Shown: in pieces, positions 31,823 through 60,748 of the stretch
Layout: the number at the start of each line of letters is the position of its first letter
Position numbering within the stretch: the stretch's first letter is position 1
Virus record (IMG/VR): IMGVR_UViG_3300028569_000019
Location: 32,780 to 96,779 of that record
From: a virus
DNA: 64,000 nucleotides
Direction: 5' to 3' (one strand)
The notes under the pieces: model-generated
What the model saw: only the letters and a program-made list of their open reading frames with translations
What the model was told of the DNA's origin: nothing
The model's database searches: none
Position numbers and translations under genes: made by a program

Positions 31823-31830
31823 TATTGTTT

Positions 31831-33352: not shown

Positions 33353-33643
33353 ATGATACTATTAACAAGAATTATTGAAGATTTAACTAAACCACAGGTT
33401 AAAGAAGCAGTTGACCCATCTCTATTAAAATTAATAGATGAAGTTATTAATGATACAAACGTTTTAGTTGTTAATAATTTGAAAATGGTAAAGGATATTT
33501 TGTCAAAAGAACCAATTGACAAAGCTAAATTAGATGTGGCTCTAAGCAACTATAAACGTTATTTTAATAGAGACAATGGTGGTACACCCGAAGTAATTCG
33601 TGGTATGACTATGCAAAATAAACTAGACGAGTTATCAAAATGA
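33353..33643 (+). CDS. Small hypothetical protein, possible head-targeted protein
   Basis: 96 residues; not recognised. Begins MILLTRIIEDL, which resembles a capsid-targeting peptide with an IxE site. The rest is helical (PSLLKLIDEVINDTNVLV). It overlaps the flavodoxin-like gene by 4 nt (ATGA), so the two are coupled. Confidence 0.55.
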   Translation: MILLTRIIEDLTKPQVKEAVDPSLLKLIDEVINDTNVLVVNNLKMVKDILSKEPIDKAKLDVALSNYKRYFNRDNGGTPEVIRGMTMQNKLDELSK

Positions 33644-34425
33644 TTAGTTTAACCGATCTATTGTTAGAAGCCAAACTTCCTCAAAGCGAGCAAGATATGG
33701 ATCTTTATGCCCGCAAATACAAAAAGACTATAGATTATTTACGTACTAAAAACAAAGTACTATTACTAACTACTAGTAATAGATGGAGTCAACACAAAGA
33801 CGATGTTCCAAAGAGTACTCAATTAGCAATTAAGATACAAGAACTATTGGGTAAAGAAAAAGTCACATTGATTGAAGTACCTAGTTTAAATATAGCTCCT
33901 TGCGAAGGTAATGTTAGTAGCAATTTGAAGTACGATGGAAATCATTGTGGTGTAAAAGGTGCGTTGCTTAAAGATAAAGATAAGAATCCAACCGGATATC
34001 ATCGTTGTTGGGCAAGTTTAAATAATAAAAACGATGAACTTTGGAAGATTACCAAAGAACTATTTGAAAGTGATTGCGTTGTATTTTTTGCTAGTGTTAG
34101 ATGGGGTCAAGCCAATGGTTACTATCAGAAATTAATTGAAAGATTAACTTGGATTGAAAATAGACATTCTACATTGGGCGAAAAGAATGTTGTACAAGAT
34201 ATTGAATCTGGATTCATTGCAGTTGGACAAAACTGGCACGGTAAACAAGTTGTAGAAACACAAAGAGCTGTGTTGGGAGATTATTATAAATTTAAAACCC
34301 CAGATCAATTATTTTGGAATTGGCAATTTACACAAGATGATACAGACGAAACCAAACGTTCGTATGATAAATCGATCAGAGTATTTGATAAAACATTTTT
34401 AAAACCATATGATAAGACTAAATAA
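33640..34425 (+). CDS. Flavodoxin-like/NADPH-dependent FMN reductase-fold protein
   Basis: 261 residues. The core has KVLLLTTSNRWSQ, a phosphate-loop-like strand, followed by STQLAIKIQELLG, a conserved CEGNVSS loop, and VVFFASVRWGQANGYYQKLIERL, matching the flavin-site and dimer segment of NAD(P)H-dependent FMN reductases. The N-terminus MISLTDLLLE resembles a T4 capsid-targeting sequence ending in LxE, so it may be packaged in the head. Its last 17 nt overlap the next gene's start. Confidence 0.65.
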   Translation: MISLTDLLLEAKLPQSEQDMDLYARKYKKTIDYLRTKNKVLLLTTSNRWSQHKDDVPKSTQLAIKIQELLGKEKVTLIEVPSLNIAPCEGNVSSNLKYDGNHCGVKGALLKDKDKNPTGYHRCWASLNNKNDELWKITKELFESDCVVFFASVRWGQANGYYQKLIERLTWIENRHSTLGEKNVVQDIESGFIAVGQNWHGKQVVETQRAVLGDYYKFKTPDQLFWNWQFTQDDTDETKRSYDKSIRVFDKTFLKPYDKTK

Positions 34426-35263
34426 CATTTTAAGTGAAGTAATACAAGAAGGTGGTGCCGGAGGTCATAGGAATTTAGTTAATGAAAATAACGGCACTGT
34501 ATGTTGTGTAATTTGTAATAAATGGTTTGGTCAAATAACTAAAAACCATTTAAAATTTAAACATAACATTTCATTAGAAGAATATGTTCAAAAATATAAT
34601 GTTCCCACAATCGCGGAAAGTAAAAAAAATATCGGTGATAAAAACCCGATGAAAACTTATTTAAATAAAAATAAATGGGAAAAAATAATTAAATCTGAAG
34701 AACATAAGCAAAAACAACGAACGATATCTTTAAATCACATTTCTTCTTTATCGGAAGAAGAAAAGAAAAAATATAATGGTTGGAAAAATGATAATATAGA
34801 CAAAGATAATTTCAGAAAAAAAGTATCCGTGGGTGTTAAAAAAAGCTATGAAAATACAGAACTCCGAGTTTTGAGAAGTAATACTATAGGTTTAATTGGA
34901 AAGAAAAATTTATTAGAAAGATATAATGAAAAAATAAAAATGGGTGAATGGATTTCCCCGGAAAATAAAACCGATTATATTGGTTACAGAGATAGAGTAA
35001 GAAAACTTACAGACGAAAATTTTCAAAAACAGTTTTTAAATATAAAAAATGCTAAACTTAGAGGCAATGGTTGGGATTTAGATCATAAAATCAGTATTCA
35101 TTATGGTTTTAAAAATCATATACCTGAAGAGCATATATCACATATTAAAAATCTGGAAATGTTACCATCAAAAATAAATTATAAAAAAGGTAGTAATTGT
35201 TCTATGTCATACGAATCATTATTAGAATCAATAGAAAAGGAAAATTATGATAAAAATATCTAA
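34409..35263 (+). CDS. HNH homing endonuclease inserted in the 5' end of the ligase-like gene
   Basis: 284 residues. An N-terminal zinc-finger-like block (CCVICNKWFGQITKNHLKFKH) precedes NUMOD-like helices and a C-terminal HNH core WDLDHKISIHYG...NLEMLPSKINYKKGS. The first 20 residues end in GGAGGH, which is exactly the start-proximal motif of the downstream ligase-like protein. Its first 17 nt overlap the upstream stop and its last 17 nt overlap the next start, the two overlaps being near-copies. It has therefore taken over the original 5' end of the ligase-like gene. Confidence 0.78.
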   Translation: MIRLNNILSEVIQEGGAGGHRNLVNENNGTVCCVICNKWFGQITKNHLKFKHNISLEEYVQKYNVPTIAESKKNIGDKNPMKTYLNKNKWEKIIKSEEHKQKQRTISLNHISSLSEEEKKKYNGWKNDNIDKDNFRKKVSVGVKKSYENTELRVLRSNTIGLIGKKNLLERYNEKIKMGEWISPENKTDYIGYRDRVRKLTDENFQKQFLNIKNAKLRGNGWDLDHKISIHYGFKNHIPEEHISHIKNLEMLPSKINYKKGSNCSMSYESLLESIEKENYDKNI

Positions 35264-36299
35264 ACTTTTAGTTTCTTTATTTGAAAATAAAAAACTATTA
35301 ACTTGTGGCGGGGCGGGAGGTCATATGGCACATCCATTTGATTTTGTTGATACTGGTGCTAAATTGGTAGATGTATTTGCGAAAGCAGTAAAGTCTTTGA
35401 AGCAAGGCGCCGGCAGTGTAAAGATTGACGGTGTTAATGCAAGTATCCGCATGGTAAACGGTCAATTTGTAATGGATCGTGGATCAGCAAAACCACTTGA
35501 TATCAAAGGAATGAGACCTGAAGATTTGGAGACAAGATTTGGGGCTGGTCACGGATTTGTTAATATAGGTGCTAAAGTTATTAATATTTTTGACGCTGCA
35601 GTTCCGTCTACGCAATCTGAATTGAAAACGCTTGGGTTACTAGATAATCCTAATATACTATTCAACATTGAATATGTAGAGGGACAAACAAATGTATTGG
35701 GATATGGTGAAATTGGAAACTTTTTAGCTATCCACGGATTAAAAGAAATTAAACCAAAAACATTTGGTAAAGATGGAAGTGTTAAATCAAGAGAAGCCGT
35801 TGAAATACCATATGATAAAACAGCAATGCAGTCTTATATAAACAAATTAAATAAGGTTGCTATGAAGAGTGGTTTTAAGGTATTGGGTAGCATTGACACT
35901 ACTTTCAAATCAGAACCAAAACTAGCAAGCGTTTTGACGCAGCCAGTTACATTGTATCCTACTGGCGAAGCTGTAACTAAGTCTTTGAAAGATTGGTTAA
36001 AAGGATTAAAGTTTAAAACTCCTCTTATTACACGTGAACAATTTTTGAAGGCGGTTGATAGTAAGAATATCAGTCAAGAGTTTCCAGGTCAAGATGTAAA
36101 CAAAATAGTTAATGATACTATTGTTTATTTAACCACAATTAAATTGGGAGATGAAATATTAAAAAATGCTACCAGTGAAATTGGAGACTTGGAAAAACAC
36201 GAAGGTATAGTTGTAAGAGACTCAAGTATTTATGGCAATCCATTTAAAATTACAGGAAGTTTTATTATAAAAGGTCTTGGAAGTAAGTTTAAGAAATAA
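35247..36299 (+). CDS. Ligase-like nucleotidyltransferase (GGAGGHM phage family)
   Basis: 350 residues. The N-terminal GGAGGHMAHPFD motif is a signature of a phage family with ligase-like folds. Motif I VKIDGVNASIR supplies the nucleotidyl-accepting Lys, ILFNIEYVEG fits motif III, HEGIVVRD fits motif IV and GNPFKITGSFIIKG fits motif V of RNA/DNA ligases and capping enzymes. The N-terminal MIKISKLLVSLFE resembles a capsid-targeting peptide. The substrate (RNA, tRNA or DNA nick) is unknown. Confidence 0.68.
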   Translation: MIKISKLLVSLFENKKLLTCGGAGGHMAHPFDFVDTGAKLVDVFAKAVKSLKQGAGSVKIDGVNASIRMVNGQFVMDRGSAKPLDIKGMRPEDLETRFGAGHGFVNIGAKVINIFDAAVPSTQSELKTLGLLDNPNILFNIEYVEGQTNVLGYGEIGNFLAIHGLKEIKPKTFGKDGSVKSREAVEIPYDKTAMQSYINKLNKVAMKSGFKVLGSIDTTFKSEPKLASVLTQPVTLYPTGEAVTKSLKDWLKGLKFKTPLITREQFLKAVDSKNISQEFPGQDVNKIVNDTIVYLTTIKLGDEILKNATSEIGDLEKHEGIVVRDSSIYGNPFKITGSFIIKGLGSKFKK

Positions 36300-36317: not shown

Positions 36318-36356
36318 ATGAAGAAAGCATCAGGTAAAAGTAATCTTTTATTTTTT
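36318..36356 (+). pseudogene. Remnant 5' end of the zinc-ribbon gene, orphaned by endonuclease insertion
   Basis: ATG and 12 codons (MKKASGKSNLLFF) then TAA. The GKSNL part matches GKSNL at residues 14-18 of the intact gene at 37168, which lies downstream of an inserted GIY-YIG gene. It looks like the former start of that gene. Confidence 0.55.
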
Positions 36357-36374: not shown

Positions 36375-37178
36375 ATGAATGAAAGGTCTATGTCTAATAC
36401 CGGAATATATAAAATAAAAAATATCATCAACAACGATTGTTATATTGGAAGTGCATCATATACTTTTAATAAACGATGGAATACACATAAACACCAATTA
36501 AAAAATAATAAACATCATTCTATTATTCTTCAAAGAGCGTGGAATAAATACGGAGAAAACAATTTTAATTTTGAAATCATAGAATATTGTGAACCATCTG
36601 AATGTCTAATAAAAGAACAACATTATTTGGATAATTTAAAACCAAAATATAATATAAATCCTAATGCTGAAAGTCCACTTGGCAGAAAACTTAAACCAGA
36701 AGACTGTAAAAAAATATCAGATAGAACAAGTGGTATAAAAAATCCATTTTTTGGAAAACATCACACAGAAGAAACTAAAAAATTACTTTCGGAGAAGTTG
36801 AAAGGAAAAAATAAAGGAAAATTTTTGGCAGAAAAAAACCCAATGTATAAAAAAACACATTCTGATGAAAATAAAAAAATAATGTCTATATCTAGTCATC
36901 AATTTTGGAATAGTGAAATGGGAATAAAATTAAAAGAAATCAAATCAAAAGAAAAATTAGGAAAAACTAATCAATTTGCAAAAAAAGGAACAGAACATCC
37001 GAATTTTGTTTCTACAACATACAGATTCTTAAATAAACAATCAAATGAAGAATTCATGGGAACTATGTTTGATTTTAGAAAAAAATATAAACTGTGTTCA
37101 GATGTTTACTATCTATTAGATGGGAAAAAGAAAAAGTATAAACAATACAAAGGATGGGTTGTAAGTTATGAAAACTAA
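36375..37178 (+). CDS. GIY-YIG homing endonuclease
   Basis: 267 residues. The GIY-YIG nuclease is N-terminal: TGIYKIKNIINNDCYIGSAS, KRWNTHKHQLKNN and the catalytic Glu in CLIKEQHYLDNLKP. The C-terminal part carries NUMOD3-like repeats (NPFFGKHHTEETKKLLSEK) and a NUMOD-type tail (YLLDGKKKKYKQYKGWV) for DNA binding. It sits between the remnant start at 36318 and the intact zinc-ribbon gene, overlapping the latter by 11 nt. Confidence 0.85.
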   Translation: MNERSMSNTGIYKIKNIINNDCYIGSASYTFNKRWNTHKHQLKNNKHHSIILQRAWNKYGENNFNFEIIEYCEPSECLIKEQHYLDNLKPKYNINPNAESPLGRKLKPEDCKKISDRTSGIKNPFFGKHHTEETKKLLSEKLKGKNKGKFLAEKNPMYKKTHSDENKKIMSISSHQFWNSEMGIKLKEIKSKEKLGKTNQFAKKGTEHPNFVSTTYRFLNKQSNEEFMGTMFDFRKKYKLCSDVYYLLDGKKKKYKQYKGWVVSYEN

Positions 37179-37839
37179 TACTGGTAAAAATATAAAACTA
37201 AAAACGGGTAAATCTAATTTAGATATAGTTAGAAGTTATTTAAACGGGGAAAAGGCATTCGTACAAGTTGGCTATGATGCCAATTTAGAGAATAATAAAC
37301 GCAAAGAAGGTGACGAATGGGAGGACAGTCAAGGTCACAAATGGGTTTGGAAGAATAAAAGTAAACGTAGAGTTTCAAAACGTGCCACGATTATTAATGA
37401 ACAACGTTGTAAAACGTGTAATATGGACGTTCGATGGGGCAATTATTTGGACGACCGAGTTTGGCCCAAAACTGGATATTGTTATGATTGTTTTATCAAT
37501 TTTCAAACTGAACTAAAAATGATGGGAATGTTTGAAGTTTACAACGAACTACAGGATCTTAAAAACGAACGTAGTATTTTAGAAGATTACAAGAAAAAGT
37601 TTGAAGAAAGTAAAAAGTTCTGCGAAGAAAATAAAGATAAAGATGTTACATTTCTTGAGGAAGATGGATCGTTTGAAAAGTGGGATGGTAATATAGATTA
37701 CAATAAAATATTTGAAGATTTGACAAAGGATATAGGTGTCATTGACGTTCGATTGGAAGAATTGAATCTTAAAATAAAAGAGTACGAAGAGAAATATGAG
37801 TCAGCTAAATTTAAGAGAAATAATAAAGCAGGAGTATAA
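37168..37839 (+). CDS. Zinc-ribbon, coiled-coil protein upstream of terminase
   Basis: 223 residues. A four-Cys ribbon (CKTCNMDVRWG...GYCYDCF, about residues 78-108) is followed by long charged helices (ERSILEDYKKKFEESKKFCE; DVRLEELNLKIKEYEEKYE). It overlaps the large terminase gene by 44 nt in another frame. The position matches that of a small terminase subunit (gp16), which is also helical, but the zinc ribbon is not a usual feature of gp16, so this is only a suggestion. Confidence 0.55.
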   Translation: MKTNTGKNIKLKTGKSNLDIVRSYLNGEKAFVQVGYDANLENNKRKEGDEWEDSQGHKWVWKNKSKRRVSKRATIINEQRCKTCNMDVRWGNYLDDRVWPKTGYCYDCFINFQTELKMMGMFEVYNELQDLKNERSILEDYKKKFEESKKFCEENKDKDVTFLEEDGSFEKWDGNIDYNKIFEDLTKDIGVIDVRLEELNLKIKEYEEKYESAKFKRNNKAGV

Positions 37840-38629
37840 GAAGTGTATTGAGGATCCTATATACTTCATGAAGAAGTATGTTAAGATACAACATCCTATT
37901 AGAGGTACTGTTGGATTTGAACTTTATCCATTCCAAGAAGAAGCTTTACAAAACTTTGTTGATAATCAATTAAACATCGTTCTTAAGAGTCGTCAGATGG
38001 GTATCAGTACCCTTACAGCCGCTTATAGTTTGTGGTTAATGACATTTCATAATGATAAGAACATTCTTTGTATTAGTATTACGCAAGAAACAGCAAAAGA
38101 AATTGTCACTAAGGTAAGATTTGCGAATGACAATCTTCCGAGTTGGTTAAAAGTTCCTTGTGTAGAAGATAATAGATTATCATTGCGATTAAAGAACGGA
38201 TCTCAAATCAAAGCGGTTTCATCTGCTGGTACAGCTGGTCGTTCTTCTGCACTATCATTACTAATCATCGACGAAGCCGCATTTATCGATGGCATTGAAG
38301 AAATTTGGCTGTCGTCTCAATATACACTGTCTACTGGTGGTAGAGCTATTATACTAAGTACGCCGAACGGCGTTGGCAATTTCTTCCATAAAATTTGGGT
38401 TGAATCTGAAGAAGGCAAGAATAATTTTAAAACAATTAGATTACCTTGGCATTTACACCCAGAAAGAGATCAAACGTGGAGAGATAAACAAACTGAGTTG
38501 TCAGGAGTAAAAGGTGCAGCACAAGAATGTGATTGTCTATGGGGAGCGTCTACGATTAGAGTCAGAGATAAAACATCAGGAAAAGAATTTGATATTTCTT
38601 TAGAAAAATTGTATTCCGGAGAATTGTAA
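37796..38629 (+). CDS. 17: Large terminase gp17, N-terminal extein plus N-half of a split intein
   Basis: 277 residues. Residues 1-246 are the packaging ATPase: Walker A LKSRQMGIST (about 63-72), Walker B LLIIDEAAF (Asp159-Glu160) and STPNGVGNFFHKIWV coupling motif. The extein ends in AAQECD and then a Cys begins an intein block, CLWGASTIRVRDKTSGKEF, ending at a stop after 31 residues. The C-half is encoded by the gene at 39400. Trans-splicing would join Asp246 to the Cys of CDFSTSGNQVV, giving a 529-residue terminase. Confidence 0.88.
   Translation: MSQLNLREIIKQEYKKCIEDPIYFMKKYVKIQHPIRGTVGFELYPFQEEALQNFVDNQLNIVLKSRQMGISTLTAAYSLWLMTFHNDKNILCISITQETAKEIVTKVRFANDNLPSWLKVPCVEDNRLSLRLKNGSQIKAVSSAGTAGRSSALSLLIIDEAAFIDGIEEIWLSSQYTLSTGGRAIILSTPNGVGNFFHKIWVESEEGKNNFKTIRLPWHLHPERDQTWRDKQTELSGVKGAAQECDCLWGASTIRVRDKTSGKEFDISLEKLYSGEL
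38521..38535 (+). repeat. 15-nt direct repeat, copy 1
   Basis: ACAAGAATGTGATTG spans the extein-intein junction. An identical copy lies at 38643-38657 at the start of the endonuclease gene. Confidence 0.9.
38534..38626 (+). mobile_element. N-intein of split TerL intein (31 residues)
   Basis: Starts at the catalytic Cys (codon 38534) in the terminase conserved junction ECD|CDFSTSG. The GASTIRVRD block is a typical intein A block. An unusually short N-half, as in the atypical AceL-TerL split intein from Ace Lake metagenomes. Confidence 0.88.
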
Positions 38630-38642
38630 TCATATGTATTAT

Positions 38643-38657
38643 ACAAGAATGTGATTG
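38643..38657 (+). repeat. 15-nt direct repeat, copy 2
   Basis: Identical to 38521-38535 but read in a different frame, just upstream of and overlapping the possible GTG start of the endonuclease at 38651. Probable footprint of insertion at the terminase homing site. Confidence 0.9.
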
Positions 38658-39403
38658 CAACCCATATGTGTGTACCTAAAAATTATGTAGCAGTCGGTTG
38701 GGATAAAATCAAGAAACAATTAAGTTGTGAAACTGATTTATATTCGTGTGAAGAAACCAAATCCGAATTGTTAAATGAAAATCATTATAAATTTTTATTT
38801 GGTCGTGCGAAGAATAGAACTCTGATAAAACAAAACCCAAAACTATATAAATCAATTCTTTTTCATACGCGTATTCTAGAAAATGCATTTAAACAACAAC
38901 AAAGTTACAAGGGATGGTATAATTTTTCTTATAGGATTCGTTTTATTGTTGAACATAATTACGATTTGACAAAATTAAAATGTCAATGTGGGAAGAAAAT
39001 AACATGGACGAAATATTGTCGTAGATGTCCGGAATATCATAAAACTCAAACTGGTAAAGTACATACTCCAGAAACAAAACAAAAAATGAGAGTATCCACA
39101 TTAAAGTATTTATCGGAAATAAAAGGTCAGATTATACCTCGTTATAATAAAAAATCAATACAACTAATTGAGGAATTTGGTAATACACATGGATATACAT
39201 TTAGACACGCTGAAAATGGCGGTGAAGTTTTTCTTAAAGAACTTGGTTATTTTCTAGATGCATATGATGAGAAAAATAATGTTGTGTTAGAAATATACGA
39301 AAAACGACACTACAAAAATGGTAAATTGAAACAAAGAGATTTTCAAAGAGAAAATGAAATTAAAAATTTGTTAGGATGTAAACTATTTACAATAGACATA
39401 TGA
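38651..39403 (+). CDS. Free-standing Vsr-like (EDxHD) homing endonuclease between split intein halves
   Basis: Up to 250 residues from GTG at 38651; ATG at 38666 is an alternative start. A CxC...CxxC cluster (CQCGKKITWTKYCRRCP) precedes the nuclease core: ENGGEVFLKELGYFLDAYD, NVVLEIYEKRHY and KQRDFQRENEIKNLLGCKLF. This E/D/H layout is that of the endonuclease family described inside fractured genes with split inteins. It is in the same frame as the terminase N-gene, one stop away, and overlaps the C-gene by 4 nt (ATGA). It likely cuts intein-less terminase genes. Confidence 0.8.
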   Translation: MIATHMCVPKNYVAVGWDKIKKQLSCETDLYSCEETKSELLNENHYKFLFGRAKNRTLIKQNPKLYKSILFHTRILENAFKQQQSYKGWYNFSYRIRFIVEHNYDLTKLKCQCGKKITWTKYCRRCPEYHKTQTGKVHTPETKQKMRVSTLKYLSEIKGQIIPRYNKKSIQLIEEFGNTHGYTFRHAENGGEVFLKELGYFLDAYDEKNNVVLEIYEKRHYKNGKLKQRDFQRENEIKNLLGCKLFTIDI

Positions 39404-39741
39404 TCGATCCAAATGTTAAACTGAATACTAAGTTTCAGATTTTGACTCCAACAGGTTACCAAGATTTTTTTGGAATGCGAAAAATAAAAAAGGATTGTTA
39501 CTATAAAATATTATTGAGTAATGGCAAAATAATAAAATGTTCGGACAATCATCCTTTTATATATAAAAATTCAGAACTACGCTCTCACGATATCAAAATC
39601 GGATCGAAAATATCGGGAGTAGATGGTGTAGATGTAGTTGTCATAACCATAGAAAAATTCGAAAATTCCATTGATTTATATGATATAGTAAACGTCTCCG
39701 ACGGCAATGTTTTTAATGTAGACGGAATTGTTTCACATAAT
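39400..39741 (+). mobile_element. C-intein of split TerL intein (114 residues)
   Basis: Runs from the initiator Met to the terminal His-Asn. It contains the usual B-like block (CSDNHPF, with His), and F/G blocks ending VDGIVSHN before the +1 Cys. Together with the 31-residue N-half it has all the parts of a mini-intein. Confidence 0.88.
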
Positions 39742-40593
39742 TGTGATTTTAGTACATCTGGTAATCAAGTTGTAAGTGTAGACGTTCTTGAGTTTTACAA
39801 ACAAACCTATCTAAAAGATCCCGTTGAAAAACGTGGGAATAATCAAGACTTATGGATTTGGGATTATCCCAATTATAGTAAAAATTATATATTGACAGCT
39901 GACTGCGCTAGAGGAGATGGTGGAGATTTTAGTGCATTCCACGTTATAGATATAGAAACAATGGAACAAGTAGCTGAATATAAAGGTCAGTTAACTACAA
40001 AAGATTATGGCAATTTATTGGTTAGTGTTGCTACTGAATACAATAATGCTTTGTTGGTAGTGGAAAATAACAATATAGGATGGGCTACATTACAACAAAT
40101 TATTGATAGAGATTATCAAAATACGTTTTATAGTGCGGCTGATTTGACTGTGGTTGATGTAGAAAAAACATATACCAATAAACTTAATTCGGCTGATAAG
40201 AAATTAGTAGCTGGATTTACAACAACTAGCAAAAATAGACCTTTAATTATAAGTAACTTGGAATTATTTTTTAGACAAAAACAAGTTATAATGAAATCCA
40301 AAAGACTATATGAGGAACTGAATGTATTCATTTGGAACGGACCAAAAGCAGAAGCTATGAAGGGATACAATGACGATTTGGTTATGGCAATTGGAATTGG
40401 TTTGTGGGTACGTGAAACTGCTTTGAAACTTAGAAACGAACAAATATCTTATAATAAGGCTATCGTTTCAAAAATATCAAAAGTAACAAGTCAAATTTCA
40501 ATTCCAAAACAAGTGAGTGCTGTACCCGATCACCACAAAACTATGGATTTCACCGTTAATGACAAAAAAGAAAGTTTAACTTGGTTGTTGTAA
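39400..40593 (+). CDS. 17: Large terminase gp17, C-half of split intein plus nuclease extein
   Basis: 397 residues. Residues 1-114 are the C-intein, with blocks TKFQILTPTGYQDFFG, GKIIKCSDNHPF and the C-terminal VFNVDGIVSHN followed by Cys115. Residues 115-397 are the terminase nuclease domain: NYILTADCARGDGGDFSAF gives the RNase H-fold Asp, VVENNNIGWATLQQI the second block, and GYNDDLVMAIGIGLWVRE the last acidic pair. ATG overlaps the endonuclease stop. The domain cuts the concatemer after headful packaging and works only when spliced to the ATPase half. Confidence 0.88.
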   Translation: MIDPNVKLNTKFQILTPTGYQDFFGMRKIKKDCYYKILLSNGKIIKCSDNHPFIYKNSELRSHDIKIGSKISGVDGVDVVVITIEKFENSIDLYDIVNVSDGNVFNVDGIVSHNCDFSTSGNQVVSVDVLEFYKQTYLKDPVEKRGNNQDLWIWDYPNYSKNYILTADCARGDGGDFSAFHVIDIETMEQVAEYKGQLTTKDYGNLLVSVATEYNNALLVVENNNIGWATLQQIIDRDYQNTFYSAADLTVVDVEKTYTNKLNSADKKLVAGFTTTSKNRPLIISNLELFFRQKQVIMKSKRLYEELNVFIWNGPKAEAMKGYNDDLVMAIGIGLWVRETALKLRNEQISYNKAIVSKISKVTSQISIPKQVSAVPDHHKTMDFTVNDKKESLTWLL

Positions 40594-40619: not shown

Positions 40620-43568
40620 ATGTCAGATAAATCTTTTCAAGAATTAAGAAGTCGATCTTTGTTTGCTCGTTTGAAGCGTTTGTTTTCAAACGACGTGATT
40701 GTTCGTAACGTTGGTGGTAAAAAATTAAAAGTTATCGACACTGATGAAATTCAGTATGCTACAGATCGTAATAGTTTAAGAGACCGTTTTAATAGATTAC
40801 GTACAACTTCGTATAATCAATATACAAGAGATTTCAATTTATCATATCAAAGTAGTCGTGTTGAATTGTTTAGAGATTATGACTGTGTTGGTCCTGATAC
40901 AATCATACCTCTACCAGACGGTACTAAACCAACTATAGCTCAACTAACGGAAAGATATAAAGATAATCCCCAGGAAAGATTCTATGTATTTTCATACGAT
41001 CACGAAACTGACAGTATAAAATTAGGCAAAGCATATCATCCTAGAAAGAAAGAAGGCGGTCCTAGAAAGTGTTGGAAAGTAATTTTTGACAATGGACAAT
41101 TCGTAATAGGAAGTGCCGGACATCCATTTTTAATGAGAAGTGGAGAATATAAAAAATTAGAAGATCTATCAATTGGCGAGTCTGTGATGCCTTTTTATCA
41201 AAAAGATTTCTACAACAATGGATATAGAAGTTTGTATAATTTTAGTAAAGGATGGCAAACAGAACATAAAATAGTCGCCGAACAATTTAATCGGGGATTA
41301 AGTTCTAACGAAGTTGTTCATCATAAAAATTTTGATAAAACAAACAATCTTCCGGAGAATTTACATATAATGTTAGACTCCGATCATAGAAAATTTCATG
41401 CGGAATTAAATAATAAAATTATTTGGTCGGTTGAAAATAAACAAAATACGTTAGAAAAGATCAAAAATTCAACTGGATATAAAAATAGAAAATTTCACAG
41501 ATGGAACGGAGATCGAGTTGATATAAACAATCCTTTTTATGGAAAACAACATTCCGTTGAATCAAATGATAAAAGATCTAATACTTTAAAAGAAATATTT
41601 GTTAATAGAGATCAAACCGGAAAAAACAATCCAAAATATAGAGATGATTTAACAATTGATATATTAAAAATTAAAGCGTTAAATTATTACAAACAACACG
41701 GAAAATTAACATCTTGGGGATTAGTTAAAGATTTAAATTGTGACTATTCGGTTCTACAGAATCGTTTGAAGAAAAATAACACCGAGTGGAAATCATTTAA
41801 AAATTATATAGAGTCATCTCTTAATCACAAAATCGTTGATATTGAGTATATAGGAGAAATAGAAGTTTACGATGTTACTGTTGAAAAGTATCAGAATTTT
41901 GCTACGGATTCTTGTTTCGTCCATAATACGATGGATATGGATCCAATTCTTGCATCTGCATTGGACATTTATGCGGATGAATGTACAACCCGAAATGAAA
42001 TGGGTGAAGTAATTCACATCAAATCTTCCAACGACGAAATTAAGAATATTCTACACAATTTGTTCTATGATATTCTAAATATCGAATTTAACCTGTGGAG
42101 TTGGGCACGTTGTATGGTTAAATATGGCGATTTTTACCTACGTCTTCATATTAGTCCTGATTATGGTGTTTATTTGGTAGAACCATTGAGTACATATTAT
42201 GTAACTCGCGTAGAAAATGCACATTTAACCAATAAAAACTTTGTTAAATTTCAAGTCAATTTGCCATACGGAAACAAATTGGAAGATTTGGAAAACTATC
42301 AAATTGCACATTTTAGATTATTGAGTGACAGTAACTTTCTACCATATGGAAAAAGTACTTTAGAAGGTGCTCGCCGTGTATGGAAACAATTGAGTTTGAT
42401 GGAAGACGCAATGTTAATTCATCGTATCATGCGTGCTCCTGAAAAACGTATTTTCAAAGTTGATATTGGTAATATTCCACCAAATGAAGTTGATAATCAT
42501 ATGCAACGCATTATGGACCAAATGAAAAAGGTTCCATATTTGGATCAACAAACTGGAGATTATAATTTAAGGTTCAATCTACAAAACATGGTAGAGGACT
42601 TTTTCTTGCCAGTTCGTGGTAGTGATAGTGGCACTAGTATTGAAAATTTATCTGGATTGGAGTGGACAGGTACAGATGATATTGAGTACCTTCGTAATAA
42701 AATGATGGCAGCACTTAAGATACCCAAAGCATTTTTGGGGTATGACGAATCTTTGAGTGGTAAAGCTACATTGGCAGCTGAAGACATAAGATTTGCTAGA
42801 ACAGTACAACGTATACAACGTATTATGGTTAGCGAATTGAATAAAATTGCAGTTATTCATTTGTACAGTCAAGGATATAGAGATGAGTCGTTGGTAGATT
42901 TTACTCTTGAGTTGACTAATCCATCCACTATCTTTGAAAAAGAAAAAATAGATGTATACAAGAGTAAAGTTGAACTTTGCAAAGATATGCAAGAACAAAA
43001 AGTATTTTCTAAGAAGTGGATTTATGAAAATATTTTCGGTTTGTCAGATCAAGATATGATATCCTTACAAAAGCAACTAATTGACGATGCTAAAGGAAAT
43101 TATAGATTTAAGCAAATCGAAGAAGACGGTAATGATCCAGCTTTGTCATTTTTAAATAAAAACGATAAAGGCGACCAAGGCGCAGGCGGTGGATCTGAGC
43201 CAGGTCCAGGAGCTGAACCTGGAGCAAATTCTGCTCCAGAAAGTGGAGCTGAAGCTGGTGGGGCGGGTGATACAGAAACTAAAGCTGGTGCTGAAAAATC
43301 AACTCCACCAAAATTAGCAGAAAAACGTGATCAAACAGGCAGAAAAGATGCTAGTAAATATCCATTTGGAGAAGATCCGTTTGGCACATTGGAAAACAAT
43401 AGACGCAGTGATTTATCAGTATCACACAAATATAAGAATGGATCTCCGTTGTCATTGGAGTCTATTAAGGGATTGACCGATTTGTTGAAAACATTGGATC
43501 AAGAAAAAGAAATTTTAAGAGAAGGAAACGAAAAATCTTTTATGGATGAACAAAATATAAAAGAATAG
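40620..43568 (+). CDS. 20: Portal protein gp20 with in-frame intein
   Basis: 982 residues; about 634 after intein removal, versus 524 in T4. The extein N-part (residues 1-88) ends VELFRDYD; the C-part starts TMDMDPILASALDIYADECT and contains the portal core MVKYGDFYLRLHISPDYGV, LVEPLSTYYVTRVEN, YLRNKMMAALKIPKAFLGYD and AAEDIRFARTVQRIQRIM, typical of gp20. The C-terminal tail is Gly/Pro/Glu/Ala rich. The portal forms the DNA gate in the head vertex that docks the terminase. Confidence 0.9.
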   Translation: MSDKSFQELRSRSLFARLKRLFSNDVIVRNVGGKKLKVIDTDEIQYATDRNSLRDRFNRLRTTSYNQYTRDFNLSYQSSRVELFRDYDCVGPDTIIPLPDGTKPTIAQLTERYKDNPQERFYVFSYDHETDSIKLGKAYHPRKKEGGPRKCWKVIFDNGQFVIGSAGHPFLMRSGEYKKLEDLSIGESVMPFYQKDFYNNGYRSLYNFSKGWQTEHKIVAEQFNRGLSSNEVVHHKNFDKTNNLPENLHIMLDSDHRKFHAELNNKIIWSVENKQNTLEKIKNSTGYKNRKFHRWNGDRVDINNPFYGKQHSVESNDKRSNTLKEIFVNRDQTGKNNPKYRDDLTIDILKIKALNYYKQHGKLTSWGLVKDLNCDYSVLQNRLKKNNTEWKSFKNYIESSLNHKIVDIEYIGEIEVYDVTVEKYQNFATDSCFVHNTMDMDPILASALDIYADECTTRNEMGEVIHIKSSNDEIKNILHNLFYDILNIEFNLWSWARCMVKYGDFYLRLHISPDYGVYLVEPLSTYYVTRVENAHLTNKNFVKFQVNLPYGNKLEDLENYQIAHFRLLSDSNFLPYGKSTLEGARRVWKQLSLMEDAMLIHRIMRAPEKRIFKVDIGNIPPNEVDNHMQRIMDQMKKVPYLDQQTGDYNLRFNLQNMVEDFFLPVRGSDSGTSIENLSGLEWTGTDDIEYLRNKMMAALKIPKAFLGYDESLSGKATLAAEDIRFARTVQRIQRIMVSELNKIAVIHLYSQGYRDESLVDFTLELTNPSTIFEKEKIDVYKSKVELCKDMQEQKVFSKKWIYENIFGLSDQDMISLQKQLIDDAKGNYRFKQIEEDGNDPALSFLNKNDKGDQGAGGGSEPGPGAEPGANSAPESGAEAGGAGDTETKAGAEKSTPPKLAEKRDQTGRKDASKYPFGEDPFGTLENNRRSDLSVSHKYKNGSPLSLESIKGLTDLLKTLDQEKEILREGNEKSFMDEQNIKE
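40884..41927 (+). mobile_element. Portal intein with HNH homing endonuclease domain (348 residues)
   Basis: Begins at Cys89 (CVGPDTIIPLPDG, A block) and ends EVYDVTVEKYQNFATDSCF-VHN before Thr437. A B block is visible at FVIGSAGHPFLMRSG. The insert contains an HNH-type core EVVHHKNFDKTNNLPENLH (His234-His235) and a NUMOD-like NPFYGKQHSVESNDKRS stretch, so it is a full mobile intein, unlike the split one in the neighbouring terminase. Confidence 0.9.
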
Positions 43569-45475: not shown

Positions 45476-46081
45476 ATGAAACAAGTACTGATAGATATTC
45501 TACCATTTGAATTCAAAAAAACATCTTTAAATGAATCTCTTAAAGATGGAAAATTATACGTAACCGGCGTATTACAACGTGCCGATGCAAAAAACCAAAA
45601 CGGCCGTGTATATCCAGAAGATGTACTAAAGAGAGAAGCTGAAAAGTATATGCAAAATTTCGTTAAACAACGTCGTGCTATGGGTGAATTGGATCATCCA
45701 GAATCATCTGTTGTTAACTTAAAAAACGTAAGTCACAACATCGTAGATATGGGATGGGAAAATAAAGATTTGGTTGGTACCGTCGAAATTCTACCTACAC
45801 CAAGTGGTAACATATTAAAAGATTTATTGCAATCAGGCATTCTTTTGGGTATCAGTAGTCGTGGATTGGGTAGTGTAAAGAAAGATATGAGAGAAGGAGC
45901 AGATGTTGTACAAGACGACTTTGATCTAATCGCATTTGATTTTGTAAGCAATCCAAGTACCCAAGGTGCTTTTATGTATCCACAAGGTAAAATCAACGAA
46001 GGAGTTGATCAACACAGAACAATTATTAACCCATATAATAATGTTGAAAGAATTATCCACAACATTCTATCAGAACTATAA
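45476..46081 (+). CDS. 21: Prohead core protease gp21 (U9/S78-like serine protease)
   Basis: 201 residues, near T4 gp21 (212). The catalytic His is in AMGELDHPESS (His74) and the Ser in LLGISSRGLGS (Ser127 or Ser128), the arrangement of herpes-protease-fold prohead proteases; DDFDLIAFDFVSNPSTQGA follows as expected. It cleaves scaffold and capsid proteins after Glu in LxE/IxE motifs during head maturation. Located between portal and major capsid genes as in T4. Confidence 0.92.
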   Translation: MKQVLIDILPFEFKKTSLNESLKDGKLYVTGVLQRADAKNQNGRVYPEDVLKREAEKYMQNFVKQRRAMGELDHPESSVVNLKNVSHNIVDMGWENKDLVGTVEILPTPSGNILKDLLQSGILLGISSRGLGSVKKDMREGADVVQDDFDLIAFDFVSNPSTQGAFMYPQGKINEGVDQHRTIINPYNNVERIIHNILSEL

Positions 46082-57831: not shown

Positions 57832-58599
57832 ATGAGTGCTAATGTCAAGAAATATTTGTATCTATTGGTTAAAACCCATTCTGTAACTGGAATGAGATAT
57901 CTTTGTAAGAGAGTTACTACTAGTGATTCCAAAGCTATTTCATACTTAGGATCCGGAACAAGATGGAATAACCATTTAAAAGTCCACGGAAAACATATAA
58001 ATACAGAAATACTTGTTAAATATGATTTAGATAGAATTGAAGAATTTAGTAAGTTGTGTATAGATTATAGTAACAAATTTGATATAGTTAAAAGTGGCGA
58101 TTGGTCAAATTTAATCATTGAAACGGGTAAACCCGGAACTAAAATAGGTATTTATTGTGGTGATAAAGGAACTTTTTTTGGAAAGAAACACACCGAAGAA
58201 ACAAAAGAAAAAATAAGCATTGCGAATCGTGGAGATAATAATGTAATGCGTAGAAATAAGATTGCTTTAGAAAAGATGATTTTGACAAAAAATAAACCGG
58301 AAAATAAAGAAAAACAAAGATTGATTGCAATTGAAGTAAATAGTAGACCCGAAGTAAAAGAAAAGATTAGACAGTCAAAATTAGGATTAAATAATCCATC
58401 TGCAGATAAAAATATTTATACATTAAAAAATAAATTTACTGGAGATACAATCAATGGAACAAGATTTGATCTAATTGAACAAATGAAAAAATTAAATAGT
58501 AACAATCCATCTATTAATATATTAACAAATGGAGACATTGGTTATTTCTTAAAAAAAGACAGAGTTGTAAAAAACGTGAAAGGGTGGACTAAGATATGA
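57832..58599 (+). CDS. Homing endonuclease inserted at the 5' end of the neck gene
   Basis: 255 residues. The N-terminus (KYLYLLVKTHSVTGMRYLC, YLGSGTRWNNHLKVHGKH) looks like a divergent GIY-YIG-type nuclease; the middle carries NUMOD3 repeats (GTFFGKKHTEETKEKISIANR) and the end a NUMOD-type tail (IGYFLKKDRVVKNVKGWTKI). Its first four codons (ATGAGTGCTAAT, MSAN) are identical to the start of the neck gene at 58596, which its own stop overlaps (ATGA). It has thus captured that gene's start and promoter. Confidence 0.72.
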   Translation: MSANVKKYLYLLVKTHSVTGMRYLCKRVTTSDSKAISYLGSGTRWNNHLKVHGKHINTEILVKYDLDRIEEFSKLCIDYSNKFDIVKSGDWSNLIIETGKPGTKIGIYCGDKGTFFGKKHTEETKEKISIANRGDNNVMRRNKIALEKMILTKNKPENKEKQRLIAIEVNSRPEVKEKIRQSKLGLNNPSADKNIYTLKNKFTGDTINGTRFDLIEQMKKLNSNNPSINILTNGDIGYFLKKDRVVKNVKGWTKI

Positions 58600-59888
58600 G
58601 TGCTAATCTTGACTCCGATAGGGTAAGATGGCCTGGAAGTGGTAGCAGTGTTACCCAAGACACTGTGCCATTTGGTTATTACTTAAGCGAAAGTTGCAAC
58701 ACAGTATCTGGCGAAACTACATTTGAAAACGATTGTAGTAGCAGCGCTATGTGGGCAGCGAAACGTTTGGGGTATCCAATCATCGATATAGAAATGATCG
58801 ATGTTAATTTTTACGCTTGTTTTGAAGAATCTGTATTGGAGTATAACCGCGTTGTTAATGAATTTAATATCGTTAATAATATGGTTAATTTACAAGGTTT
58901 ACCTCAAGCCACATACAACAATTTAACTGGATTGGGTGTAAAAAGTACAGGTTTGCCTTTTATAATCCAATTAAGCAAACAATACGGAGCAGAAGCACTT
59001 GTTGGTGGTGAAGTTGAAGTTAAACGCAATTATGTAACTATTAGTGGAAGTATCAATCCATCTGCTACCAATCAGGTGTATGACTTAAATAAACTAATTG
59101 GACAAGACATTGAACATTTAACTGGTTCCAGAATTGAAGTGAAAAGAGTATTTCACCATCGACCACCAGCTATTGCACGTATTTATGATCCATTTAGTAT
59201 GACAGGTATGAGTTACAGCAACGTACTCAGTGAAATGGGATTCAGCGCATATAGTCCCGCTACACAATTCTTGATGACTCCTATATTTGAAGATTTGGAA
59301 CGTGTACAAGCTATCGAATTCAATGATATGGTTCGTAAAAGCGCTTACAGTTTTGAAATTCTAGGCAACAACAAGTTGAGAATATTTCCAATCCCAACCG
59401 ATAATTTTAGAGTGTATATAGATTACATCGTTGAACGTGAACGTGATATTACCAACTTTTACAGCGGATCTCGTTATCAATATATAAGCGACCCAAGCGA
59501 CGTTCCATATGAATATTGTACTTACTGTAAGGTAAATCAGCCTGGTAAACAATGGATCAAAAAGTATTTTTTGGCATTGTGCAAAGAAACATTGGGTCGT
59601 ATTCTTCAAAAATATAGTACCGTACCAATTCCTGGCGGCGAAGTAACTCTTGATGGTGCTGAACTTCGTTCTGAAGCTAAAGAAGAAAAAGATTCATTGC
59701 TTGAAAAACTAAGAGATATGTTGGAAAAGACGCTTCGTGTTAATCAATTGGAAAATAAAGGAAAAGAAAGTGAAGAAATGAATAAGATGTTGTCCCGTGT
59801 ACCTTTACATATTTACATTGGGGTTTGGGCATTTTTACTAATATATATTAATATATGGACAAACATCAATGTGATATCTGTGGTTTAA
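58596..59888 (+). CDS. 13: Neck/head completion protein gp13-like
   Basis: 430 residues. Segments FYACFEESVLEYNRVVNEFN, DPFSMTGMSYSNVLSEMGF and LRIFPIPTDNFRVYIDYIVE, plus WIKKYFLALCKETLGRILQKY near the end, are typical of the T4-like gp13 neck family. The last 28 or so residues (starting PLHIYIGVWAFLLIYINIW) are hydrophobic and read into the following endonuclease gene by 34 nt; the native C-terminus has probably been altered by that insertion. It closes the portal and joins the tail. Confidence 0.75.
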   Translation: MSANLDSDRVRWPGSGSSVTQDTVPFGYYLSESCNTVSGETTFENDCSSSAMWAAKRLGYPIIDIEMIDVNFYACFEESVLEYNRVVNEFNIVNNMVNLQGLPQATYNNLTGLGVKSTGLPFIIQLSKQYGAEALVGGEVEVKRNYVTISGSINPSATNQVYDLNKLIGQDIEHLTGSRIEVKRVFHHRPPAIARIYDPFSMTGMSYSNVLSEMGFSAYSPATQFLMTPIFEDLERVQAIEFNDMVRKSAYSFEILGNNKLRIFPIPTDNFRVYIDYIVERERDITNFYSGSRYQYISDPSDVPYEYCTYCKVNQPGKQWIKKYFLALCKETLGRILQKYSTVPIPGGEVTLDGAELRSEAKEEKDSLLEKLRDMLEKTLRVNQLENKGKESEEMNKMLSRVPLHIYIGVWAFLLIYINIWTNINVISVV

Positions 59889-60748
59889 AATATAAAAGCA
59901 CCAGATCTTTATCAATTCATATAAAATCTTCACATAAAATATCGACTGAAGAATATTATATAAAACATGTTAATATAAATAAAAGTGAGTGTATTTCTTG
60001 TAAATCAAAAACTAGGTTCGTGTCTTTAGTCGACGGATATTCAAAATACTGCAGTATTAAATGTTCGAAAATACATTATTATAGCGATGTGAATAATAGA
60101 ATTTTTGTATCGGAAAAAACAAAAATTGCTATGAAAAATCCCATTGTTAAAGAAAAAATGTCTAAATTTTTTTCGAAAGAAAAGTCAAAGGAAACTTTAG
60201 AAAAAATGAGTATATCTAGTAAAAAAAGATTTGAGGATGAAAATTTTAAAAAAAAGATATATACCAAAGAGAGAAATGAGAAAATCTCGATAGCAAAAAA
60301 GAAATATTGGGATACACATCCAGAAGAGAAAAAGCGTGTTGGTCAGATATGGAAAATATTGAAAGAAGAAGACGAATCCAAATGGAGAGGAAATTTATTA
60401 AGAGCGTCTAGACTGGGGTTTAAAAAAATATTTTCTCCTACAGGAAACACATCGTTGGAGGAAAAATTGTATAAACAGTTGGAGTTAGAAAATATAAAAT
60501 ATATACCACAATATGTTATAGATTATAAAGTGTTCGATGCGTATTTGCCGGATTATAATCTAGTAATTGAGATTGATGGTATATTTTGGCATCCAAAATC
60601 GCTGGGTGAATGTAAATATGAATTTCAAAAAACATCATATTTTAATGATTTGGAAAAAGAAAATTTATTAAAACAAAAAAACATAAAATTGATACGAATT
60701 CGAGAAAATGAATTTCCAGATTCAATCATTAACACTATAAATAAATAA
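59855..60748 (+). CDS. Homing endonuclease with zinc fingers and Vsr/DUF559-like nuclease
   Basis: 297 residues. N-terminal C2H2-like finger (CDICGLKYKSTRSLSIHIKSSH) and a CxxC...C-x4-C ribbon (CISCKSK, KYCSIKC), basic helices, then a nuclease core SLEEKLYKQLELENIKYIPQ, DAYLPDYNLVIEIDGIFWHP and IKLIRIRENEFP. Acidic residues follow the ExD/ExD Vsr-like plan seen in the gene at 31831. It starts inside the gp13 3' end and precedes the gp14-like gene, a free-standing mobile gene in the neck operon. Confidence 0.75.
   Translation: MDKHQCDICGLKYKSTRSLSIHIKSSHKISTEEYYIKHVNINKSECISCKSKTRFVSLVDGYSKYCSIKCSKIHYYSDVNNRIFVSEKTKIAMKNPIVKEKMSKFFSKEKSKETLEKMSISSKKRFEDENFKKKIYTKERNEKISIAKKKYWDTHPEEKKRVGQIWKILKEEDESKWRGNLLRASRLGFKKIFSPTGNTSLEEKLYKQLELENIKYIPQYVIDYKVFDAYLPDYNLVIEIDGIFWHPKSLGECKYEFQKTSYFNDLEKENLLKQKNIKLIRIRENEFPDSIINTINK

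What the first reader, a model, noticed from the sequence alone, without database searches (positions are those of the whole stretch)
34409..35324. Endonuclease captured the 5' end of the ligase-like gene, with the start region duplicated
The endonuclease begins with about 20 residues ending GGAGGH, and the ligase-like protein also has GGAGGH near its start. The 17-nt overlap with the upstream stop (34409-34425) is repeated in related form at the endonuclease/ligase junction (35247-35263), starting ATGATAA in both. So the inserted unit copied the original junction and restored a coupled start for the host gene.
Basis: partly seen in the sequence, partly recalled or inferred. Interest (0 to 1): 0.75.

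Follow-up and report, generated by a model that had tools for sequence, protein, structure and literature searches.

The report
Start-stealing endonuclease carrying replacement gene start
In this freshwater T4-like phage a homing endonuclease gene has landed inside another gene, taken over that gene's own start and supplied it with a different one, and the same arrangement recurs at two other genes nearby, so these selfish genes seem to carry a replacement for the piece of the gene they break.

Summary
The core observation is right. Of 88 relatives of the ligase-like gene, 87 start with the leader that the window's endonuclease now carries (86 complete, one truncated by its contig end); in the window the endonuclease body sits exactly after the GGAGGH codons. 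The ligase now has a different leader. One HEG-less relative (L062) carries that leader letter for letter (65 nt, against about 77% identity on both sides) behind a decayed remnant of the native leader: most likely a deletion scar.
One detail is wrong: the new leader is not a copy of the old junction (13/17 nt; an unrelated start scores 14/17). It is foreign sequence that travels with the HEG.
The finding is bigger than stated. The GIY-YIG HEG at 36375 and the NUMOD3 HEG at 57832 show the same anatomy: native 5' stub, HEG, recoded 5' end joined to the gene body. For the GIY-YIG element (8 genomes) the recoded end follows the HEG while the body follows the phage. Non-HEG inserts at two of the sites do not recode.
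Best reading: homing elements that cut a gene's 5' end, use its start and carry a divergent, probably cut-resistant replacement, mirroring fungal mitochondrial elements that replace gene 3' ends. Cleavage is untested.

The parts
33640..34425 (+). upstream gene, weak FMN-reductase-like (below Pfam cut-off), own leader MISLTDLLLE; stop overlaps the next start by 17 nt
34409..34468 (+). captured native 5' end of the ligase-like gene (MIRLNNILSEVIQE + GGAGGH), now the start of the endonuclease ORF
   Evidence: identical over 88 nt to HEG-less relatives L003/L004/L008; match ends 1 nt after GGAGGTCAT
34409..35263 (+). HNH homing-endonuclease-like ORF (case 1), fused in frame to the captured leader
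   Evidence: PHROG 5104 E=2e-15; conserved LDH...N...N motif shared with HEGs between gp18 and gp19 of T4-like phages
34469..35240 (+). endonuclease body, not found in any of the 88 relatives
35241..35306 (+). replacement leader module (AAAATT + MIKISKLLVSLFENKKLLTC codons), imported
   Evidence: 65-nt exact run shared with L062 versus 77-78% identity in both flanking genes, Fisher p=1e-7
35307..35324 (+). second GGAGGH copy, where the ligase body resumes; synonymous haplotype of L024/L035/L042, not of L003/L004
35307..35357 (+). short tract right of the insert with L024-like bases (6/51 mismatches to L004 versus 21/942 beyond): candidate co-conversion tract
   Evidence: Fisher p=0.0018
35247..36299 (+). 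ligase-like host gene with replaced leader (KxDG and EGxVVR motifs; no Pfam, PHROG or PDB match)
36318..36347 (+). case 2: stranded native 5' stub MKKASGKSNL of the next gene, cut off by the GIY-YIG HEG
   Evidence: relatives without the HEG start 18 nt after the ligase stop
36375..37178 (+). case 2: GIY-YIG/NUMOD3 homing endonuclease
   Evidence: Pfam GIY-YIG 3e-8, NUMOD3 4e-13; PHROG 314 1.5e-34
37168..37257 (+). case 2: recoded 5' end MKTNTGKNIKLKTGKSNLDIVRSYLNGEKA; start overlaps the HEG stop by 11 nt
   Evidence: all 8 HEG+ genomes, 0 of 83 HEG-
37168..37839 (+). case 2 host gene, upstream of the large terminase gene
57832..57843 (+). case 3: captured native start ATGAGTGCTAAT (MSAN), in frame with the HEG
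57832..58599 (+). case 3: NUMOD3 homing-endonuclease-like ORF
   Evidence: PHROG 655 2e-5, Pfam NUMOD3 3e-8
58596..58619 (+). case 3: recoded start ATGAGTGCTAAT CTTGACTCCGAT (HEG-less relatives: TTRGAYCAAGAY); overlaps the HEG stop by 4 nt
58596..59888 (+). case 3 host gene: head-tail adaptor; C-terminus longer than in most relatives, next to the HEG at 59855
   Evidence: PHROG 211 1.5e-11

Best explanation
A free-standing homing endonuclease that targets the 5' coding end of a conserved late phage gene moves as a unit made of the nuclease body plus a divergent replacement for the 5' end of that gene. On insertion the native start, with its translational coupling to the gene upstream, is cut off; in cases 1 and 3 the nuclease reads through it as its own start, in case 2 it is left as a dead stub. 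The gene body is joined to the replacement start, which overlaps the nuclease stop so that translation restarts. The replacement keeps the gene working and, because its DNA differs from the native sequence, probably protects the occupied allele from its own nuclease and from being lost by recombination between the two copies. When the nuclease is later deleted, the replacement start stays behind as a footprint. Shown by sequence comparison: empty, occupied and scar-like states, HEG-linked transfer of the replacement, capture of the start, the overlaps. Inferred: cleavage, where the cut lies, resistance of the recoded end, function of the replacement leader.
For: Case 1: 87 of 88 relatives have the native leader on the ligase gene; only L062 and the window have the other one. 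Left identity runs 88 nt and ends at GGAGGTCAT. The replacement leader is a 65-nt exact match in L062 against 593/762 and 748/975 in the flanking genes (p=1e-7). L062 keeps a native-leader remnant, 25 of 29 nt like L046 by hand, in frame with KNYDKNI*. Right-hand tract of foreign bases, p=0.0018. Case 2: 8 HEG+ genomes all have native stub + HEG + recoded start; 83 HEG- contigs all have the native start. Double dissociation: window versus HEG- relatives, body 92% and 5' segment 61%; window versus HEG+ L168/L170, body 64% and 5' segment 88%. Case 3: HEGs start with MSAN like the native gene; the gene restarts with a recoded start; empties L247-L258 and a scar-like L246. Negative controls: a J-domain gene inserted before the ligase (L011, L012, L018, L019) and a methyltransferase-like gene inserted at the case-2 site (L024, L037, L038) leave the next gene's native start unchanged. 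All three HEG stops overlap the recoded start (17, 11, 4 nt), against 17 of 80 adjacent pairs overall. No known intron RNA at either locus.
Against: No cleavage or homing has been measured. Case 1 has a single occupied genome. The HEG-derived part of the L062 scar upstream of its ATG is only 6 AT-rich nt, so a state preceding HEG insertion is not strictly excluded. In case 3 the recoded stretch is only about 12 nt, and some HEG+ alleles keep the LDQD residues. The source of the replacement ends is unknown. The uninterrupted GGAGGHMAHPFD codons remain in the occupied allele, so immunity requires that recognition extends upstream of GGAGGH.
Confidence: 0.72

Rival explanations
1. Leader recombination: many genes here share a capsid-targeting-like leader, and cargo genes are gained and lost by recombination between leaders. 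The endonuclease is one more cargo gene joined to a leader.
For: Nine CTS-like N-termini versus a shuffled mean of 2.6. A J-domain gene between the same two genes also starts MIRLNNIL or MIKLINIL.
Against: The HEG carries leader plus GGAGGH, which is ligase-specific; J-domain insertion leaves the ligase leader native; cases 2 and 3 have the same anatomy at genes without such leaders.
Confidence: 0.12
2. Illegitimate insertion with a local target duplication; the downstream copy of the 5' end then diverged in place.
For: GGAGGH and MSAN are present on both sides of the inserts.
Against: The replacement ends are shared between lineages whose bodies differ by 23-36%, so they were transferred and did not diverge locally.
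Confidence: 0.06
3. The leader swap in case 1 came first (L062-like state) and the HEG inserted later between two tandem leaders.
For: L062 has both leaders and no HEG; its HEG-specific trace is only 6 nt plus the frame.
Against: L062's native remnant lacks EVIQEGGAGGH and its start is TTG, as expected of decay; case 2 shows HEG and recoded start travelling together in 8 genomes.
Confidence: 0.08
4. Assembly chimera in the window.
For: Case 1 is seen in one contig only.
Against: In-frame fusion, a coupled junction, and an independent contig (L062) with the same replacement leader at the same place; cases 2 and 3 each recur in several contigs.
Confidence: 0.02

Closest known systems
Fungal mitochondrial mobile ORFs that replace a gene's C-terminus (Allomyces atp6; Glomus atp6, atp9, cox2, nad3; PMC3630166)
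   Same: Endonuclease ORF inserted within a gene, carrying a divergent foreign copy of the gene's end that replaces the native one; the native end is left displaced; transferred horizontally
   Different: There the 3' end is replaced and the native 3' end is stranded. Here the 5' end is replaced, the native start is stranded or used by the nuclease, and the hosts are T4-like phages with HNH, GIY-YIG and NUMOD3 nucleases
Free-standing homing endonucleases of T4-like phages (seg and mob genes; intronless homing; PMC2988022)
   Same: Nuclease families, lack of an intron, translational overlap with neighbours, co-conversion of flanks; a HEG may split a gene (Aeh1 mobE in nrdA)
   Different: Typical ones lie between genes and cut hundreds of bp or more away, or split a gene into two working parts; the review passages read do not describe a carried replacement 5' end or capture of the host start
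Engineered home-and-rescue gene drives (HomeR, PMC7968924)
   Same: Homing into a target gene with an encoded rescue for that gene
   Different: Engineered with CRISPR in flies; here natural, and resistance is inferred only
Collaborative homing, F-CphI and the psbA intron (PMC6083498)
   Same: A free-standing HEG is kept from cutting its own genome by a change at the target in the donor
   Different: There an intron protects; here a recoded gene end would

Membership tests
free-standing phage homing endonuclease | HEG-family nuclease | tested here: met
   PHROG/Pfam matches for 36375 and 57832; for 34409 PHROG 5104 (function unknown) and an HNH-type motif shared with T4-like HEGs, no Pfam HNH hit
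free-standing phage homing endonuclease | optional: absent from close relatives at the same locus | tested here: met
free-standing phage homing endonuclease | not inside an intron or intein | tested here: met
   no Rfam match at E<=1; ORFs contiguous
free-standing phage homing endonuclease | cuts the HEG-less allele and is inherited by repair | not testable with these tools
   needs enzyme and coinfection assays
mitochondrial mORF gene-end replacement element | carries a divergent duplicate of the target gene's end that becomes part of the gene | tested here: met
   (5' end instead of 3' end)
mitochondrial mORF gene-end replacement element | the replaced end is the C-terminus | tested here: not met
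   the N-terminus is replaced; so not filed as a member, only as a mirror image
T4-type capsid-targeted proteins (CTS) | short shared N-terminal propeptide with (L/I)xE, and a prohead protease in the genome | tested here: met
   9 of 89 starts versus shuffled mean 2.6, max 8; S77 protease at 45476
T4-type capsid-targeted proteins (CTS) | protein found in the head and cleaved | not testable with these tools
   needs virion proteomics

The most novel reading that the evidence does not exclude
The captured leader is a working capsid-targeting propeptide, so the endonuclease of case 1 is packed into the phage head, trimmed by the prohead protease and injected with the genome: a homing nuclease delivered by the virion that can attack a co-infecting phage at once, while its replacement leader rescues the packaged ligase-like protein.
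Probability: 0.15. Interest if true: 0.9.

Novelty: new variant of a known kind. Interest (0 to 1): 0.74.

Why it matters
It would show that phage homing endonucleases can enter the start of important late genes (one target is a head-tail adaptor) without killing them, by bringing a rescue copy of the piece they break. That is the logic of engineered home-and-rescue drives, found in nature and in several independent nuclease families in one phage group. It gives a direct sequence signature (stub, HEG, recoded start) to search for, predicts cleavage sites to within tens of bp, and explains otherwise puzzling changes of gene starts in phage genomes.

Tried and rejected
Junction copied from the upstream gene: rejected (ranking; HEG C-terminus). 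Source of the replacement leader: degenerate scans of viral contigs for MIKISKLLVSLFE(N/K) found only L062; source unknown. HEG 1 relatives with the same body in IMG/VR: none. Other gene families with an EGGAGGHM leader: one narrow pattern, no hit. Ligase family in GTDB contigs: five distant hits, showing that GG..GHMAHPFD is the family's own N-terminus behind variable leaders. Structure: ligase model pLDDT 55, no significant PDB match (rank 2 was a tRNA-ligase adenylyltransferase domain at E=0.1); HEG model pLDDT 34, unusable. The ligase assignment therefore rests on KxDG and EGxVVR motifs only. Paper searches for a phage precedent of 5'-end replacement found none in the open library, which is not proof of absence. 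The HEG at 31825 was looked at by eye and shows no consistent recoding of the 33353 gene.

Full report
WHAT WAS CLAIMED AND WHAT IS THERE. The window is part of a 96.8-kb viral contig. Its major capsid protein is about 50% identical to those of Microcystis and Flavobacterium T4-like phages. The endonuclease ORF at 34409-35263 and the ligase-like ORF at 35247-36299 are as described, each with GGAGGH near its start and each overlapping the stop before it by 17 nt.

CASE 1, EMPTY ALLELES. Eighty-eight distinct contigs carrying the ligase-like gene were compared. In 86 the gene starts with the native leader followed by E-GG[AV]GGH-M-[AS]-HPFD (for example MIRLNNILSEVIQE-GGAGGH-MAHPFDF), and one more (L024) is truncated within that leader. 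This is the leader that the window's endonuclease carries. At DNA level the window matches L003, L004 and L008 over 88 nt, through GGTGGTGCCGGAGGTCAT, and departs one base later. The body of the endonuclease therefore lies exactly behind the GGAGGH codons. Its frame has no ATG, GTG or TTG from codon 2 to codon 80, so it depends on the captured start.

CASE 1, REPLACEMENT LEADER. The ligase body restarts behind MIKISKLLVSLFENKKLLTC-GGAGGH. The only other genome found with this leader is L062. The exact shared run is 65 nt, while the flanking genes are 593/762 and 748/975 identical (Fisher p=1e-7). L062 has no endonuclease. Upstream of its leader is TTGATTAAATTAAATAATATATTTACC, a decayed native leader (25 of 29 nt like L046 over a slightly longer stretch, by hand), in frame with AAAAATTATGATAAAAATATCTAA, that is, with the last codons of the endonuclease. 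I read this as a deletion scar, with the caveat that only 6 nt upstream of the ATG are HEG-specific. In the window the first 51 nt right of the insert differ from the closest relative L004 at 6 sites, versus 21 in the next 942 (p=0.0018), several of them with bases seen in L024 and few others. This is what a short co-conversion tract would look like.

THE JUNCTION REPEAT. The two 17-nt overlaps are 13/17 identical, but the unrelated start of the 19420 gene reaches 14/17. The endonuclease's last residues align with those of related endonucleases that lie between the tail sheath and tail tube genes of T4-like phages. The overlap was re-created, not copied.

CASE 2. The next gene (37168) has the same history with a different nuclease. 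In 83 contigs it starts MK[KR][AS]xGKSNL and in nearly all of them lies 18 nt after the ligase stop. In the window that native start is still at 36318-36347 but runs into a stop. A GIY-YIG endonuclease follows, and the gene then restarts as MKTNTGKNIKLKTGKSNLDIVRSYLNGEKA. Seven further contigs with the nuclease (L165-L171) all have stub, nuclease and recoded start; two of them (L168, L170) have a different gene upstream. The 5' segment follows the nuclease and the body follows the phage: window versus nuclease-free relatives, body 92% and 5' segment 61%; window versus L168/L170, body 64% and 5' segment 88%.

CASE 3. The head-tail adaptor gene (58596, PHROG 211) starts ATGAGTGCTAAT TTRGAYCAAGAY in nuclease-free relatives (L247-L258). 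In the window, L245 and further contigs a NUMOD3 endonuclease starts with ATGAGTGCTAAT, taken from the gene, and the gene restarts ATGAGTGCTAAT CTTGACTCCGAT; other nuclease-bearing lineages have other recodings (MSANLDAD, MSAGLDQD, MSAALDND). L246 has no nuclease directly upstream but a recoded start preceded by TGGACTAAAAT, which resembles the nuclease's last codons: a second likely scar.

CONTROLS. Other genes inserted at the same places do not come with recoding: a J-domain gene before the ligase (L011, L012, L018, L019) and a methyltransferase-like ORF at the case-2 site (L024, L037, L038). No known intron RNA was found at either locus.

MECHANISM. The simplest account is homing into the 5' coding end of a gene by a unit consisting of nuclease and replacement end. 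The nuclease's stop overlaps the replacement start in all three (17, 11, 4 nt), so translation can be handed on. Divergence of the replacement would protect it from the nuclease and prevent loss by recombination. Cleavage and resistance are inferred, not shown.

THE LEADERS. Nine N-termini in the contig follow a pattern of M, a few residues, two of L/I and E, against a shuffled mean of 2.6 and maximum of 8. The genome has a T4-type prohead protease (Pfam S77), and native ligase leaders mostly end in (L/I)xE directly before GGAGGH. T4 capsid-targeting sequences are 10-20 residue propeptides that can bring foreign proteins into the head (PMC5694885, PMC9958956). So the captured leader may send the endonuclease into the head. 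The replacement leader keeps an LFE site but lacks the one directly before GGAGGH. This is the most novel reading and is untested.

COMPARISON. The closest precedent is in fungal mitochondria, where mobile endonuclease ORFs bring a foreign C-terminus that replaces the native one (PMC3630166). Here the N-terminal end is replaced and the native start is reused or stranded. Phage free-standing endonucleases are known to sit between genes, overlap them and sometimes split them (PMC2988022); I found no description of a carried replacement 5' end in the papers searched. Engineered home-and-rescue drives use the same logic (PMC7968924).

Noticed in passing
59855-60748 and the end of 58596-59888: Next to the HNH-like HEG at 59855 the head-tail adaptor ends ...LHIYIGVWAFLLIYINIWTNINVISVV; most relatives end at LHIYIG, while L246 and L254 share the extension. 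Possibly a 3'-side alteration linked to a HEG site; whether L246 and L254 carry that HEG was not checked.
   Followed up: partly
37796-40593: Large terminase split by intein-like halves (N-part ending CLWGASTIRVRD..., C-part in 39400-40593) with an ORF at 38651 (weak NUMOD3 match) between them: looks like a split intein with a free-standing endonuclease.
   Followed up: no
40620-43568: Portal gene carries an apparent intein with an HNH-like core (from CVGPDTIIPLPDGTKP to CFVHNT).
   Followed up: no
L011:2915-3589 and homologues in L012, L018, L019: DnaJ-domain protein with nearly the same leader as the ligase gene, inserted between the FMN-reductase-like and ligase-like genes: possibly a head-packaged J-domain protein.
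   Followed up: partly
33353, 33640, 34409, 46094, 56653 and contig positions 385, 1531, 10348: Family of CTS-like leaders on unrelated proteins, suggesting a set of head-packaged proteins in this phage group.
   Followed up: partly
37168-37200: The recoded case-2 start contains a repeat-like MKTNTGKNIKL / KTGKSNLD, as if an older stub had been joined on.
   Followed up: no
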